From the NCBI RefSeq assembly GCF_002584535.1, contig NZ_NUOT01000024.1, positions 146,398-210,397 on the forward strand: a stretch of 64,000 bases of DNA, read 5' to 3'. Positions 21,168-49,659 of the stretch are shown in pieces. How positions within the stretch are numbered: the first letter of the stretch is position 1; every line of letters starts with the position of its first letter. Position numbers and translations under genes: made by a program. The notes below the pieces were generated by a model. The model did not search any database. It saw only the letters and a list, made by a program, of their open reading frames with translations, and was not told the origin of the DNA. Source of the stretch: Bacillus cereus (lineage in GTDB: Bacteria; Bacillota; Bacilli; Bacillales; Bacillaceae_G).

Positions 21168-21237
21168 ATATGAAAAAGAGGGGTAACAATGTTACTGAGC
21201 GTTTGTTTGATTCATCAATTGTTGGCTTCATAATAAA

Positions 21238-21258
21238 TGATAATGGTTATCATTATCA
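21238..21258 (+). promoter_or_regulatory. Upstream overlapping Fur boxes
   Basis: TGATAATGGTTATCA (21238-21252) overlaps TGGTTATCATTATCA (21244-21258). Each is close to the 7-1-7 Fur consensus TGATAAT-N-ATTATCA. Confidence 0.8.
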
Positions 21259-21300
21259 TTGTCAATACTTTTCTTAATGTTTTTTGTGGAAAATTTAAAT

Positions 21301-21357
21301 TTTACAAAAAATTAATTTTATAATATAATGAAAACGTTTATTTGATAATAATTATCA
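21301..21357 (+). promoter_or_regulatory. Sigma-A promoter with a perfect Fur box
   Basis: TTTACA (21301-21306), a 17-base spacer and TATAAT (21324-21329) form a good promoter. TGATAATAATTATCA at 21343-21357 is a perfect 7-1-7 Fur box just downstream of the start point, where bound Fur-Fe would block transcription of the lipoprotein gene. Confidence 0.85.
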
Positions 21358-21382
21358 ATGTTAATTAAGGGAGCGGGAATGA

Positions 21383-23443
21383 ATGAAAAAGCCATGGAAA
21401 GTCATGACGACAGTTGCTGTTGTTTCTTCACTTCTACTATCAGTAGGGTGTGCAGGGAAAAAAGAAGAAACGTCAAAAGAAAAAAATACATATCGTATAC
21501 CAGTAACTGATTATTCGTTTGATACAGCAGCAAATATGTTTGCATATACGGAATTTGAATTGTCTGGGGAACCATTAGCAGAAGGACTTGGATTAGATTT
21601 AGACATATTGGATGCACAAAAACGAAATAAACCAACGAAATTTGATTACATGGCTGGAATTGAATCTTATGAGTACTCAGAAGAAGCAATGTATGAGGTT
21701 GTTGAGAAATCCGGTCTTGGACTGCATTTACTGCACGCACCAATTGTACAAAAAATGACAAAAGCAGAAAATAAAGATGTTCCTACTTGGTTAGAGAGTC
21801 GATTTTATACATTAGCTGATAGTGTAGGGTATCCACGTAAAGAAATATTTACAAATATGTACCCGACATTTATGGAATATGCTGGCGGTGATCCGCATTA
21901 TACACAAAAGGTGGATACTTCTGTATATGCAGAAAACGATGATAAAACATATGTACCAGCGTACCAAATGGATTTTAAAACATTACGCTGGGATCGTACG
22001 AAAATGAATAAAACGTTAACACCAGCAGCGTACGGTTCAACGTTTTTAAAACAAACATTATGGGCTGGGGACTTTTTAGGTGGTTTCCATACATTAGATA
22101 AAGATGAAGAGTTAGAGGCAACATCAAGCACACAAGATAAAGATGCAAATATTCGTCTTGGAAAAAGTAGTGCAGATGGTATGCAAGGAGTGATTTTAAC
22201 AGAAGAAATTTGGAATAAGCTTGCATATATTCGTGATGGATTATTTTATGATGCGAATGCAAAACAATTAACGAGCGGAATTGGAAGTAAATATAATCCA
22301 GATAACGGCCTTGTTTATTTACCACATGAGATTAAAGTAAATGAAGAAGAAAAAGGCGGAATTGCAAAAGCTGGCGGATTAGAAGTGAAAGATGCACGCA
22401 GTATGCTTCGTGATCAGTGGATGATGTTATGGCCAACAGCAGAATTTTTCGGAATGACGGATCAACGTCCCGATAATAAAAATGTAAATCCAGCCTTCCA
22501 AGCGACATTCGATGGTGCGCCATTTGCCAAAGCGGTAGCAGAAAATACAGATCTTGATGTAGTGAATGATGTAAAAGCAGATGACCCATATTCTTTAAAT
22601 CGTGATGTAATGCTACATGTATTTAAAAATATTGAAGCGATGCACTACAATAAAGAAACAGGAGCATTTGTTGCAGAGCATAGCGGAACAGAGCAAGGAA
22701 AACGAATTGATACATTTGATGCAAGTTATATGGTAGAAGCACTTCGTATGTTCCAGCGTGCGATTGATGGAATGCCAGTGGGATATGCCAGTGGTGCAGA
22801 GGCACAAGGGTTACAAACAGAAGAAGGAAAACGTGCACTTACTATGATTAAGACACAAGCAGACTTTTTGTTAAAAAATATGAAAACAAAAGATGGTTTC
22901 ATAGCAAATGGCTATACAATCGGTAAAGGGGTAGATGAGGAACCTGTAACACTAGAAGCACAACTAGGAGCAATTCGTGGGTTAACAGCGGCCTTTCTAG
23001 CAACGAAAGATGAAACGTATCGCGTGGAAGCACGTAAACTATATGATTTAGTTGATCGTAAAATGTGGAATAAAGAAGCTCGTGCATATGAAACGAAAAA
23101 AGGTGAAATGAAATATACACCATATACAGCTGGTAGCGTATCAGCAGTTTTACGCGTTGCATTACAAAACTTAAGTAACACAGATGCAGATAAAACGAAA
23201 TATGATTCATTGGAACAAAAAGTAATTACTTCTCGTTATGTTGATTTTTATGAGCAAGTAATCAATGGACCATCATTAAAAGAAGGAATGCAAACAAGTG
23301 AATTTTGGGATACTGGAGATGTTTATATAAAAGGAAAGCTTGGAAATGCTGATAAGGATAACGTACCACAAATTCAAGCTGGGCATGGTAAGAATGGTAT
23401 TGCTCCGGTTCTTGTAAATGTTGAAGTGAAAAAAGAGAAATAA
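21383..23443 (+). CDS. Iron-regulated lipoprotein, alpha/alpha-toroid-like
   Basis: A 686-residue protein with a lipoprotein signal (LLLSVGCAG, lipidated Cys23). The mature part is acidic and largely helical. Repeated helical-hairpin segments such as EALRMFQRAIDGM, TMIKTQADFLLKNM, EAQLGAIRGLTAAFLAT and YRVEARKLYDLVDRKMW suggest an (alpha/alpha)6 barrel like that of some glycosidases, but I see no recognisable catalytic motif. The two Fur boxes predict expression under iron starvation at the outer membrane face. The next gene encodes a di-heme lipoprotein, separated by a terminator. The family was not recognised. Confidence 0.8.
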   Translation: MKKPWKVMTTVAVVSSLLLSVGCAGKKEETSKEKNTYRIPVTDYSFDTAANMFAYTEFELSGEPLAEGLGLDLDILDAQKRNKPTKFDYMAGIESYEYSEEAMYEVVEKSGLGLHLLHAPIVQKMTKAENKDVPTWLESRFYTLADSVGYPRKEIFTNMYPTFMEYAGGDPHYTQKVDTSVYAENDDKTYVPAYQMDFKTLRWDRTKMNKTLTPAAYGSTFLKQTLWAGDFLGGFHTLDKDEELEATSSTQDKDANIRLGKSSADGMQGVILTEEIWNKLAYIRDGLFYDANAKQLTSGIGSKYNPDNGLVYLPHEIKVNEEEKGGIAKAGGLEVKDARSMLRDQWMMLWPTAEFFGMTDQRPDNKNVNPAFQATFDGAPFAKAVAENTDLDVVNDVKADDPYSLNRDVMLHVFKNIEAMHYNKETGAFVAEHSGTEQGKRIDTFDASYMVEALRMFQRAIDGMPVGYASGAEAQGLQTEEGKRALTMIKTQADFLLKNMKTKDGFIANGYTIGKGVDEEPVTLEAQLGAIRGLTAAFLATKDETYRVEARKLYDLVDRKMWNKEARAYETKKGEMKYTPYTAGSVSAVLRVALQNLSNTDADKTKYDSLEQKVITSRYVDFYEQVINGPSLKEGMQTSEFWDTGDVYIKGKLGNADKDNVPQIQAGHGKNGIAPVLVNVEVKKEK

Positions 23444-23479
23444 GAAAAACAAGAAAAAGCAATTCATGGTAGTATTAAG

Positions 23480-23511
23480 ACCGAACAAGTGTAGAAACTT
23501 GTTCGGTTTTT
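23480..23511 (+). terminator. Terminator after the iron-regulated lipoprotein
   Basis: The stem ACCGAACAAG / CTTGTTCGGT with a T-run; it separates the two lipoprotein genes into different transcripts unless read through. Confidence 0.9.
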
Positions 23512-23642
23512 GTGAAGTAAGGGTGTAGTAAGATGATACATTCATTGATGAGATTTTATAGACTAGTATCCACCAGTTTAATTGTCAATTTTTAAGTGGT
23601 AGGAATGTTGTCTAATGAGGGATAAGAAGGAAGGGTCAGATG

Positions 23643-25601
23643 ATGAAGCGCTTGTTTATTGCGGTTGTGTTGCTTCTATGCATTGGGGTGTTTGCGAGTT
23701 GCGAAGTGAAAATGTCAGGAAAAGAAGTAAAACGCGACGAAGCTGTTCATAGTAATAATATTATAGTAAGCAAAGATGGAAAATGGATTTATACTGCAAA
23801 TATTGATGTAAATACTGTAACGGTGACAGATGTAAAAAGTAGAAAAGTAGTATCGGAGATTCCAGTTGGAAAAGAACCGAGACAATTAACAATAAGTCCA
23901 GATGAAAAGACATTATATGTTTCTTGTATGTATGATAATAAGATAGATGTTGTATCATTGGAAAAGAAAAAAGTGATTGATCGAATTGTAACAGAAATAG
24001 AGCCATTTGGTATTGTTACAAATCCAGATGGGACAAAGTTGTACGTATCAAATTTCCGTTCAGGGAATGTATCAGTTATTGATATTGATAAGAAAAAAAC
24101 AATTCAAAAGATTCAAATTGGCGACCGTCCACGAACGTTAGCGATGACAAAAGACGGGAAAAAATTGTATGTGCCACATTATTTAGAGGGGAAAATTAGT
24201 GTTGTAGATACAGAGAGTAATAAAGTAAAGAAAGTAATTACGCTTGCTCCTTCCCCAGACAAAGAAGACCGTAAAAAGAGTCAAGGGGTTCCAAATACAT
24301 TAGAGCAATTTGTAATTGCACCAGATGGTAAGACAGCTTGGGTGCCACACATGCTGACGAATACCGATACACCAATTCAATTTGAGGAAACTGTGTTTCC
24401 AGCTGTTTCAATTATCGATTTAGAAAAAGATGAAGAAGTTACAAAACAACGTAAGCAATTATTTGAAGCGATGAATGTGAAAGATACAAAGAATGAAACA
24501 ATGATTGTGTCTAATCCATACGATGTAGTTTTTAATGAAAAAGGGACGAAAGTATTTGTTGTTATGTCAGGTAGTGAAGATCTTGTCATGTTTGATCTAA
24601 CTCGCGGTGGCAATGCGACACAAATTGTAAGACGCATTCCAGGAAGTAACCCGCGGGGGATTATTTTACTTCCAAAAGAAAACACGTTGGCTGTTCATAA
24701 TGCAATGAGTCATGACCTGGCATTTCTACAAACAGGTGGCGATGATTCATACGCAAAGGTGAAAGCTGATAAGAAGACAGTTAAATTAATTGAAAAAGAT
24801 TCTTTACCAAAACTAGTACGCGAAGGGAAAGAAATTTTTTATAGTGCAAATAGTGATAAGTATGCAACAACAATAACCGGAAACAACTGGATGAGTTGTG
24901 TGACGTGTCATAGTGATGGAGAAATTAATGGGTTATCATTGATGACACCAAAAGGGAAACGAAATGTACCAAGTAATGTTTTAACTACTCAAACAGGTTT
25001 ATTTATGTGGGATGGATCACGTGATGATTTCACAGATTATATTCACACTGTACAAGGTGAAATGGGGGGGATGATGGAATTAGATCCAGGAAAAGAGATT
25101 CCAAAAGATGCCCAGCATATGTATGATGCGCTGCAGGCATTTTTAGATGATCCTAATTCATTCCCAGTACCAAAGAGCCCGTATCGTCAAGCTGATGGCT
25201 CGTTAACTCCTACGGCCAAAGACGGAGAGCAATTGTTTAAAGGAAAGGCAAATTGCTTAACATGCCACGGCGGAGAGAATTTGACCAATAGTACAAAAGC
25301 GATAGATGAAAATGGAAAGTTGACAACGAATAATACAAATTTCCTTTATAATATTGGAACTGCGAATGAAACAGATACAGGCTATGAGGGTGACGCACGC
25401 GGTGGTTTTCAAAATAAGCGGCAAAAAGGATTTTTTGATCCACCAACACTTCGTGGTGTAGGGGCAACAGCACCATATTTACATGATGGTAGTGCAAAAA
25501 CAATTGAGGAAGCAGTAGAGAAGCATCAATATGAAGAAAAGCCGCAGTTATCTAAACAGGAAGTTCATGCAATTGCAGAATATGTAAAAGCGATTCAATA
25601 G
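23643..25601 (+). CDS. Beta-propeller lipoprotein fused to a di-heme MauG/CCP-type cytochrome c
   Basis: 652 residues; the second of two ATGs gives better spacing to AAGGAAGGG. A lipoprotein signal (VFASC, Cys20) is followed by a YVTN-type beta-propeller (about 35-390; repeated units such as DEKTLYVSCMYDNKIDVV and DGTKLYVSNFRSGNVSVI). The C-terminal domain has two haem c motifs, C419-VTC-H423 and C538-LTC-H542, and the peroxidase/MauG signatures MWDGSRDD and APYLHDGSAKTIEEA. It should sit on the outer face of the membrane and need the cytochrome c maturation genes resABC found later in the window. Substrate unknown; electron transfer or oxidative modification of a partner is inferred. Confidence 0.9.
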   Translation: MKRLFIAVVLLLCIGVFASCEVKMSGKEVKRDEAVHSNNIIVSKDGKWIYTANIDVNTVTVTDVKSRKVVSEIPVGKEPRQLTISPDEKTLYVSCMYDNKIDVVSLEKKKVIDRIVTEIEPFGIVTNPDGTKLYVSNFRSGNVSVIDIDKKKTIQKIQIGDRPRTLAMTKDGKKLYVPHYLEGKISVVDTESNKVKKVITLAPSPDKEDRKKSQGVPNTLEQFVIAPDGKTAWVPHMLTNTDTPIQFEETVFPAVSIIDLEKDEEVTKQRKQLFEAMNVKDTKNETMIVSNPYDVVFNEKGTKVFVVMSGSEDLVMFDLTRGGNATQIVRRIPGSNPRGIILLPKENTLAVHNAMSHDLAFLQTGGDDSYAKVKADKKTVKLIEKDSLPKLVREGKEIFYSANSDKYATTITGNNWMSCVTCHSDGEINGLSLMTPKGKRNVPSNVLTTQTGLFMWDGSRDDFTDYIHTVQGEMGGMMELDPGKEIPKDAQHMYDALQAFLDDPNSFPVPKSPYRQADGSLTPTAKDGEQLFKGKANCLTCHGGENLTNSTKAIDENGKLTTNNTNFLYNIGTANETDTGYEGDARGGFQNKRQKGFFDPPTLRGVGATAPYLHDGSAKTIEEAVEKHQYEEKPQLSKQEVHAIAEYVKAIQ

Positions 25602-25938: not shown

Positions 25939-26469
25939 TTATGCAATACCGATATATTTTAAAGTTTTTGATGGGGTACTGTGATCAAAGAAGTGTTGTA
26001 AGAATGCAATATCAACACCAGATTTGTATGCACAATATCCCCAAGTTTTTCGCAGTGTATGTGAGCTAATCCCTTCTAAACCAACTTCTTTTGCAGCTTT
26101 GTTTAAAATATACCATGCATGCTGTCTTGTAATGGATTTTGTTCCTTTTTGCGATTTTAATAATGGTTCATTTCGCTTCCATATTTTACGCTCTCTCATA
26201 TAATCTTCGATTGCATGCTGTAAATCTTCATTTACAGCAAACCATTTATGTTTTTTTACTTTTTCATTGTAAAATAAAATGGAGTGACGAACATTTTCAT
26301 TTTCATCGATGACATCACCGACTTTTAATTGTAAAATCTCACTTACTTTTAGACCGGAATTTACAGCTAGTACGAATAGTAAGCCATCACGTTTCGAAGA
26401 TTGTAAAAGTATATTTTTGATTTTTTCTAATTGTGTTTCGTTTTGAATAGGTTGTCCTGCTTGTTTCAT
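25939..26469 (-). CDS. Short tyrosine recombinase
   Basis: 176 residues; ATG chosen with GGAGAG eight bases upstream (a GTG three codons earlier overlaps that site). It is only the catalytic domain of the phage-integrase family: HTLRKTW gives the H-x-x-R pair, FDHSTPSKTLKYIGI the second His and the Tyr nucleophile. The first catalytic Arg is replaced by Lys (SGLKVSEIL instead of GLRxSEL). The N-terminal core-binding domain is absent or very short. There is no att site or prophage next to it, so it is a stand-alone recombinase-like gene of unknown target. Confidence 0.85.
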   Translation of the reverse strand: MKQAGQPIQNETQLEKIKNILLQSSKRDGLLFVLAVNSGLKVSEILQLKVGDVIDENENVRHSILFYNEKVKKHKWFAVNEDLQHAIEDYMRERKIWKRNEPLLKSQKGTKSITRQHAWYILNKAAKEVGLEGISSHTLRKTWGYCAYKSGVDIAFLQHFFDHSTPSKTLKYIGIA

Positions 26470-26576
26470 TTCACGCACTCTCCTCTGTTATGTGTGTAAA
26501 GGAAAGGATTAACTTGTTTATAACTATAAAGGGAGAGTGTGAATTTCATGTGAACTCCTGGTGAAGTTAAGACAAA

Positions 26577-49281: not shown

Positions 49282-49587
<306 letters not shown>

Positions 49588-49589
49588 TT

Positions 49590-49659
49590 ATTGTAAAACG
49601 GTTTTTCGAACTTTTCAACATAAAATTATAATGATAATGCTTATCAATTAGAGTGTCAA
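49590..49659 (-). promoter_or_regulatory. Two fer promoters, the distal one with a Fur box
   Basis: On the minus strand, P1 is TTGACA (49654-49659), 17 bases and TATCAT (49631-49636). P2 is TTGAAA (49613-49618), 17 bases and TACAAT (49590-49595). The Fur-like box TGATAATGCTTATCA (49632-49646, one mismatch to the 7-1-7 consensus) lies between -35 and -10 of P1. Confidence 0.7.

What the first reader, a model, noticed from the sequence alone, without database searches (positions are those of the whole stretch)
21238..25601. Fur-controlled lipoprotein next to a beta-propeller/di-heme MauG-type lipoprotein
Seen: two Fur boxes (one perfect 7-1-7) around a good promoter, a 686-residue lipoprotein with toroid-like helical repeats, then a lipoprotein joining a YVTN-type propeller to a cytochrome domain with two CxxCH motifs and APYLHDGSA. 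Known: MauG/CCP enzymes oxidise protein or peptide partners, and Fur genes usually serve iron acquisition. Inference: a surface redox-plus-binding pair used in iron limitation, perhaps for iron or copper handling or oxidation of a carrier. It is odd that iron starvation would favour a haem protein. A terminator separates the genes, so joint control is not proven.
Basis: partly seen in the sequence, partly recalled or inferred. Interest (0 to 1): 0.75.

Follow-up and report, generated by a model that had tools for sequence, protein, structure and literature searches.

The report
Iron-starvation redox lipoprotein pair
Two neighbouring predicted surface lipoproteins, one a haem-containing propeller protein and one a ring-shaped helical protein of an unnamed family, form a conserved pair under probable iron control; every genome checked for both carried them together with an iron permease or its usual partner, so they are probably an undescribed helper module for taking up iron.

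Summary
Two Fur boxes (one perfect) flank a good promoter before a 686-aa lipoprotein (A); a 653-aa propeller/di-haem lipoprotein (B) follows, after a terminator-like hairpin. A has no Pfam or NCBIfam match and is predicted to be an (alpha/alpha)6 toroid. B lies directly behind A in all 33 Bacillales-type loci examined, window included (gap 6-114 nt in 32, 196 nt here); 21 of 33 have a Fur box with 0-2 mismatches before A. In a 150-genome sample A occurs in 19, full-length B in the same 19, and all 19 carry an FTR1-type iron permease (66 of 150) with an unnamed secreted partner, here 'AYSY' (50 of 150). In a second order the AYSY result repeats (4 of 4; 5 of 39 overall). EfeO and EfeB were found in none of the 19. 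In Aeromonas caviae a B-like multihaem gene overlaps an FTR1 gene, with an AYSY gene two genes on. Best reading: A-B is the extracytoplasmic redox/binding module of an FTR1-dependent iron importer, analogous to EfeO/EfeB but not of those families. The tie to iron uptake rests on comparative evidence; the chemistry is inferred. B has His, not the MauG tyrosine, at the sixth-ligand position, so 'MauG-type' is too narrow.

The parts
21238..21264 (+). Fur box 1, extended: TGATAATGGTTATCA (1 mismatch) with overlapping 2- and 3-mismatch boxes
21301..21329 (+). sigma-70-like promoter TTTACA-17-TATAAT
   Evidence: 11 of 12 matches; the scan as a whole is not above chance, 21 found against 23.1
21343..21357 (+). 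Fur box 2, perfect 7-1-7 TGATAATAATTATCA, 40 nt before A
   Evidence: box with 0-2 mismatches in 21 of 33 loci, window included
21383..23443 (+). A: 686-aa lipoprotein, unnamed family, predicted (alpha/alpha)6 toroid
21449..21451 (+). codon of lipobox Cys23 of A, invariant in 15 Bacillales-type rows (absent in the two Aeromonas rows)
21551..21706 (+). acidic conserved segment of A (residues 57-108: 11 Asp/Glu invariant in 33 sequences); candidate metal site
   Evidence: inference
23477..23510 (+). terminator-like hairpin between A and B
23640..25601 (+). B: 653-aa lipoprotein, YVTN-type propeller plus di-haem CCP-like domain
23757..24719 (+). propeller part of B (about residues 40-360; boundaries approximate, my reading)
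24897..24911 (+). first haem motif CVTCH (420-424)
25059..25061 (+). Glu474, invariant in 13 rows, in VQGEMGG; suggested counterpart of the catalytic Glu of bacterial CCP (recalled)
   Evidence: inference
25254..25268 (+). second haem motif CLTCH (539-543)
25524..25526 (+). His629 at the sixth-ligand position of the second haem (ligand role inferred)

Best explanation
A and B are the extracytoplasmic redox and binding module of an FTR1-dependent iron uptake system. Shown by sequence: the two lipoprotein genes form one conserved unit, usually with a Fur box before A, and every genome in which both were sought and A was found also has a separately located AYSY locus, with FTR1 wherever FTR1 was sought; that locus mostly has its own Fur box. 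Inferred: when iron runs short Fur leaves both loci; B, held on the outer face of the membrane, uses its two c-type haems, with peroxide or oxygen as electron acceptor, to oxidise Fe(II) (or to reset the oxidation state of iron bound elsewhere); A, a helical toroid with a conserved acidic segment, receives or docks the iron and passes it with AYSY to the FTR1 permease. B would thus play the part of EfeB or of the yeast ferroxidase Fet3, and A/AYSY that of EfeO, without being members of those families. The direction of electron flow and the ligand of A are not shown. In the window the hairpin between the genes probably gives more A than B (inference).
For: B directly downstream of A in 15 of 15 Bacillales-type loci, 19 of 19 A-positive genomes of a 150-genome sample and 4 of 4 of a second order. 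Full-length B in exactly those 19 of 150 (up to eight candidates scored per genome). Fur box with 0-2 mismatches within 200 nt before A in 21 of 33 loci, 3 mismatches in 9, against 1 of 113 (0-2) and 9 of 113 (0-3) control ORFs. FTR1 in 14 of 14 A genomes and in 19 of 19 with 66 of 150 overall; AYSY in 19 of 19 with 50 of 150 overall and 4 of 4 with 5 of 39 overall; hypergeometric P 3e-8, 5e-11 and 6e-5, not corrected for kinship. A. caviae: a B-like protein (30% over 584 aa, 6 CxxCH) whose stop overlaps the FTR1 start, with an AYSY relative two genes on (AYSY homology E 1e-26 with a profile built without it). Box with 0-1 mismatch before the AYSY/FTR1 genes in 13 of 14 AYSY loci inspected. 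EfeO/EfeB found in 0 of 19. Precedent: EfeB haem peroxidases proposed to oxidise Fe2+ (PMC8197335, passages).
Against: A-B is not next to FTR1 in the Bacillales-type genomes (nearest seen 11 kb, G009). 31 of 50 AYSY-positive genomes lack A, so the permease can work without it. In the two Aeromonas loci examined A has no B within 12 kb, no lipobox and no Fur box by this consensus (best 5 mismatches), and in A. caviae it lies about 80 kb from the B-like/FTR1 locus. Three of 33 loci lack a convincing Fur box before A. The absence of EfeB is not significant by itself (P 0.10). A has no demonstrated metal site; A and AYSY show no usable homology to EfeO. No expression data; the 50 most induced iron-starvation genes of B. 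anthracis Sterne, as seen in passages, include none annotated as cytochrome or peroxidase, though whether that species carries these genes was not tested. The window's own genome is not held, so its FTR1 is untested.
Confidence: 0.5

Rival explanations
1. Enzyme-substrate pair like MbnH-MbnP or MauG: B oxidises tryptophan or tyrosine side chains of A, creating a cofactor or metal site; A is the working protein.
For: One-to-one pairing and adjacency; correlated divergence, r 0.91; di-haem relatives of B include the MbnH family model, 6e1c (recalled as MbnH; the record says 'Di-heme enzyme') and MauG; A has invariant Trp/Tyr (W203, W227, W277, W350, W642, Y96, Y98).
Against: The tyrosine of 6e1c is replaced by His629; scores lie far below the MauG and MbnH family cut-offs (40.6 of 443.85 and 69 of 362.85 bits); A has no Pfam or NCBIfam hit; it does not by itself explain the tie to FTR1.
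Confidence: 0.2
2. B is a surface peroxidase or electron sink that protects the iron-starved cell, and A is a scaffold; the tie to FTR1 is indirect (shared aerobic, iron-poor niches).
For: CCP-like di-haem domain; scattered occurrence of A, 2 of 398 genomes of the phylum and 19 of 150 of the order.
Against: Nesting inside AYSY genomes in two orders and the Aeromonas B-like/FTR1 gene overlap; the best box fits Fur better than PerR in 15 of 16 Bacillales-type loci scanned, window included, one tie.
Confidence: 0.15
3. A acts on a surface or extracellular carbohydrate or glycosylated siderophore (its fold is that of GH105 enzymes and sugar epimerases) and B oxidises the product or the freed iron.
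Against: A shared fold shows no function; catalytic residues could not be mapped; no Pfam hit at all.
Confidence: 0.1
4. Co-occurrence is an accident of shared ancestry and A-B serves another metal such as zinc or copper.
For: In L015 and L077 a ZnuA-like binding protein lies next to B, in L078 two genes further on; a GTP-binding protein (L015; in L078 a similar one, both COG0523-type by my reading) follows in two of the three.
Against: The best box matches Fur better than Zur in 16 of 16 Bacillales-type loci scanned, window included; the AYSY association holds in two orders.
Confidence: 0.05

Closest known systems
EfeUOB / YwbLMN (FTR1 permease + EfeO + DyP peroxidase EfeB)
   Same: Fur-linked, FTR1 permease, extracytoplasmic haem peroxidase-like protein and a lipoprotein or binding protein
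   Different: B is a c-type di-haem propeller protein, not DyP; A is predicted a toroid; A-B is unlinked to its FTR1 in Bacillales-type genomes; the FTR1 is of the short type with AYSY
Fur-regulated imelysin operons with an EfeB homologue (P. aeruginosa PA4370-4373; PMC3143127, passages; that paper calls EfeB a likely di-haem peroxidase, later papers a DyP)
   Same: Fur-regulated pairing of a helical surface lipoprotein with a haem protein
   Different: A shows no profile similarity to 12 imelysin-domain sequences of related genomes beyond the signal peptide; B has a propeller
MbnH-MbnP / MauG
   Same: di-haem CCP-like oxidase paired with one partner protein
   Different: His instead of Tyr at the sixth-ligand position; propeller fused; scores far below the family cut-offs
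Hydrazine synthase beta and gamma subunits (5c2v; fused form NF052342)
   Same: propeller (beta) and di-haem (gamma) parts, in one chain in B; gamma is the best PDB match of the cytochrome part
   Different: scores far below family cut-offs (105.4 of 1250 bits for the fused form)
Fet3-Ftr1, P19-cFtr1, FtrABCD, FetMP (FTR1-type iron transporters; PMC9174327, passages)
   Same: redox or binding partner serves an FTR1 permease
   Different: Fet3 is a multicopper oxidase and P19 a small periplasmic protein; a propeller/di-haem partner did not appear in the listings of three paper searches

Membership tests
Bacterial di-haem cytochrome c peroxidase / MauG (PF03150) | Two CxxCH haem motifs and a CCP_MauG domain | tested here: met
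   PF03150 30.4 bits over cut-off 25.6; CxxCH at 420 and 539
Bacterial di-haem cytochrome c peroxidase / MauG (PF03150) | Sixth ligand of the second haem: Met (CCP) or Tyr (MauG, MbnH) (roles recalled) | tested here: not met
   His629 aligns with Met of 3o5c and 1iqc and Tyr of 6e1c; His at that place in 12 of 16 loci shown, six residues later in 4; 17 of 33 loci end before it
MbnH-MbnP pair | MbnH-type score of B and an MbnP partner | tested here: not met
   TIGR04039 69 bits against cut-off 362.85; A has no NCBIfam hit. Whether the library holds an MbnP model was not checked
EfeUOB | EfeO (M75) and EfeB (DyP) together with FTR1 | tested here: not met
   neither found in 19 A-positive genomes of 150; FTR1 present in 19 of 19
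Imelysin / EfeO (PF09375) | Sequence relationship of A or AYSY to M75 | tested here: inconclusive
   hhalign probability 15 (AYSY) and 44, signal peptide only (A), on shallow alignments; weak M75 matches inside AYSY proteins below the cut-off
(alpha/alpha)6 toroid (GH105, AGE epimerases) | Fold (of the predicted model) | tested here: met
GH105 or AGE enzyme | Catalytic residues and activity | not tested
   no residue-level structural alignment or coordinates were available
Fur regulon | Fur-type operator at the promoter, conserved in orthologues | tested here: met
   control
Fur regulon | Derepression in low iron or a fur mutant | not testable with these tools
   needs expression data
Oxidase-dependent FTR1 iron transporter | Redox partner that functions with the permease | tested here: inconclusive
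   co-occurrence and the Aeromonas gene overlap; function not tested

The most novel reading that the evidence does not exclude
A, B, AYSY and FTR1 together are an undescribed class of oxidase-dependent iron importer, in which a membrane-tethered c-type di-haem propeller peroxidase with a histidine in place of the CCP/MauG sixth ligand replaces the copper or DyP ferroxidase and a helical-toroid lipoprotein replaces the imelysin; Aeromonas carries a multihaem version next to its permease.
Probability: 0.35. Interest if true: 0.8.

Novelty: new variant of a known kind. Interest (0 to 1): 0.62.

Why it matters
It would give FTR1 permeases, whose redox partners differ from system to system, a new type of partner based on c-type haem, and assign a role to two unnamed protein families (A and AYSY) of Gram-positive bacteria. 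It makes a testable point about why iron-starved cells would spend haem: to gain iron. The pairing also offers a clean system for asking whether a di-haem enzyme oxidises iron, a partner protein, or both.

Tried and rejected
Zur or PerR control: the best box is closer to Fur than to Zur in 16 of 16 and than to PerR in 15 of 16 Bacillales-type loci, one tie. A as a known family: no Pfam or NCBIfam hit, no PDB sequence relative except weak toroid hits. A in viral contigs: 14 stretches matched a pattern, none encodes a relative. A or AYSY as imelysin, or AYSY as a split-off N-terminal domain of long EfeU: no usable similarity. Single-sequence structure of A: useless, pLDDT 32.5. AYSY on plasmids: no match (one Bacillales-type query, which did not find the Aeromonas one at E 1e-3; the profile does). 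Near-identical DNA on plasmids: none. B as a generic YVTN protein: 88 of 150 genomes have some match to the B profile, but only the 19 A-positive ones a full-length one among the matches listed. Two other B-like plasmid hits have no gene annotated as FTR1 nearby. Other FTR1 relatives on plasmids are mostly annotated EfeU; their surroundings were not examined. In the fold comparison no imelysin appeared among the 50 rows shown; that does not exclude one.

The window is Bacillus cereus-group-like by my reading of its genes (recalled, not tested by a call); no such genome was among the loci returned by name.

Full report
Observation. The two genes, the two Fur boxes, the promoter, the lipoboxes, the propeller, the two CxxCH motifs and the hairpin are as described. 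The exact 7-1-7 box is unique in 64 kb and has a chance expectation near zero; at up to 3 mismatches the window is not enriched.

The pair is a unit. A scan of one genome per species with A returned 14 loci, all Bacillales in the broad sense by their titles; an Anoxybacillus plasmid adds one, and four Aeromonas records carry A at 43-44% identity. B follows A at once in 15 of 15 Bacillales-type loci and is absent within 12 kb in the 2 Aeromonas loci fetched. A occurs in 2 of 398 genomes of the phylum of G001, 5 of 19 of its family and 19 of 150 of its order. All 19 have B directly downstream, and a separate search with the B profile found full-length B in those 19 and, among the matches listed (up to eight candidates scored per genome), in no other; 88 of 150 have some match, the other listed ones to the propeller region except two. 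Those two, in the A-negative genomes G547 and G478, are C-terminal ends of B; in G547 it stands right behind a stretch resembling the first 23 residues of A (weak, E 0.029), which looks like the scar of one deletion. A and B distances correlate at 0.91 (many B sequences there are cut short by the locus end), which co-inheritance alone explains.

Fur control is conserved. In 200 nt before A the best box has 0, 1, 2, 3, 4 and 6 mismatches in 9, 6, 6, 9, 2 and 1 of 33 loci. Control: upstream stretches of 113 ORFs of 150 aa or more, all six frames, spurious ones included and first possible start taken, in L001-L014: 1 of 113 has a box with 0-2 mismatches, 9 of 113 with 0-3; of 50 such ORFs in the window none has 0-2 and 4 have 3. 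Three loci (L045, L051, L053) lack a convincing box before A. B has no strong box of its own in the window (6 mismatches); one locus (L045) has a 2-mismatch box there.

The tie to FTR1. In an A. caviae record a 989-aa protein resembling B (30% over 584 aa, E 3e-70), with six CxxCH, ends on the start codon of an FTR1 permease (PF03239, E 2.7e-42); an FAD amine oxidoreductase and a 186-aa secreted protein follow. The last belongs to a family which I call AYSY from its likely mature start: a profile built from ten Bacillales-type members without it finds it alone among 489 open frames of three Aeromonas loci, E 1e-26 (pairwise E 2e-17, 28% identity). AYSY lies beside FTR1, or one gene away, in all 14 A-bearing genomes; no Pfam family reaches its cut-off. 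In the 150-genome sample FTR1 occurs in 66 and AYSY in 50, all 50 of them FTR1-positive; all 19 A-positive genomes carry both. In a second order A occurs in 4 of 39, AYSY in 5 of 39, and all four are among the five (FTR1 was not searched for there, though two of the four are). Not tested for either: the A-positive genomes G411 and G426, and the hosts of the plasmids. Hypergeometric P values of 3e-8 (FTR1), 5e-11 (AYSY) and 6e-5 (second order) ignore kinship and overstate the strength. EfeO (17 of 150 over the cut-off) and EfeB (16 of 150) are absent from all 19, but for EfeB alone this would happen by chance with P 0.10. In 13 of 14 AYSY loci inspected a box with 0-1 mismatch stands before the AYSY/FTR1 genes; L058 is the exception. 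These loci also hold glycan-type genes; in L065, the one checked by Pfam, an epimerase, an LPG-synthase-type membrane protein, a phosphodiesterase-type and a PMT-like protein.

B. The cytochrome part is closest in the PDB to hydrazine synthase gamma and to 6e1c, 'Di-heme enzyme', which I recall as MbnH. The alignment puts His629 at the place of the CCP methionine and the 6e1c tyrosine; that these residues are haem ligands is recalled. Four of 16 loci shown have the His six residues later, so the ligand is a prediction. Glu474 in VQGEMGG is invariant in 13 rows and may be the counterpart of the CCP catalytic Glu (recalled), which would speak for a peroxidase.

How it may work. FTR1 permeases work with partners that oxidise or hold iron: EfeB/EfeO, Fet3, P19 (PMC9174327, passages). 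In B. [quoted passage not shown] EfeB homologues are proposed to oxidise Fe2+ (PMC8197335, passages). Fur-regulated pairing of imelysin lipoproteins with an EfeB homologue is on record (PMC3143127, passages). By analogy A-B supplies the extracytoplasmic redox and holding steps for AYSY-FTR1. Since 31 of 50 AYSY genomes lack A, the module would be optional, or replaced there by something I did not identify.

Against. No expression, biochemical or genetic data; A-B and FTR1 are unlinked in Bacillales-type genomes; the Aeromonas A lacks box, lipobox and B neighbour; the window's own genome could not be searched; Pseudomonadota genomes could be reached only through plasmid-collection records. The B. 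anthracis Sterne iron-starvation study, read in passages, shows no gene annotated as cytochrome or peroxidase among its 50 most induced; whether it carries A-B was not tested, and its supplement was not read.

Literature. In an open-access library six searches aimed at the pair or at such a partner of FTR1 listed no paper whose title or abstract start describes it; the listed papers were mostly not opened, and subscription papers are mostly not held. Four further searches had other aims.

On the second look I added the AYSY homology test, corrected the shift of the sixth-ligand His in four loci from five to six residues, placed ZnuA in L078 two genes from B, and narrowed several statements to what the calls saw.

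Noticed in passing
window 49632-49646: Another strong Fur box (1 mismatch) between a ferredoxin-like 82-aa ORF on the minus strand (49282-49530; named by its cysteine pattern, recalled) and an HTH_40/DEAD-helicase gene pair.
   Followed up: partly
L075 4953-5277 and L076 5331-5561: Genomes G547 and G478 keep only C-terminal remnants of B; in G547 it lies right behind a possible start of A (E 0.029), as if one deletion removed most of both genes.
   Followed up: partly
L015, L077, L078: Similar neighbourhood: a DUF2325-type protein, an unnamed protein, A, B, then a convergent ZnuA-like binding protein (next to B in L015 and L077, two genes further in L078); a GTP-binding protein, COG0523-type by my reading, follows in L015 and L078 (DUF2325 by Pfam in L077 and by annotation in L015, by resemblance in L078).
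   Followed up: partly
L058-L065, L067-L070, L072, L073: AYSY: a secreted protein family, mostly with a C-terminal hydrophobic stretch, with a conserved GNPGLFGVG motif and no Pfam family over its cut-off, beside or one gene from a short-type FTR1, in clusters with glycan-type genes.
   Followed up: partly
L066 and L071: FTR1 genes of 288 and 282 aa in genomes where no AYSY, EfeO or EfeB was found, each with a perfect Fur box just upstream.
   Followed up: no
window 21237-21265: A minus-strand promoter-like site (11 of 12) overlaps Fur box 1, although the neighbouring DUF72 gene runs on the plus strand.
   Followed up: no
L016: An Aeromonas plasmid carries A beside glgC and an EAL-domain gene amid several IS elements.
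   Followed up: no
window 25939-26478: A 179-aa protein on the minus strand that matches the phage integrase family over nearly the whole Pfam domain.
   Followed up: no
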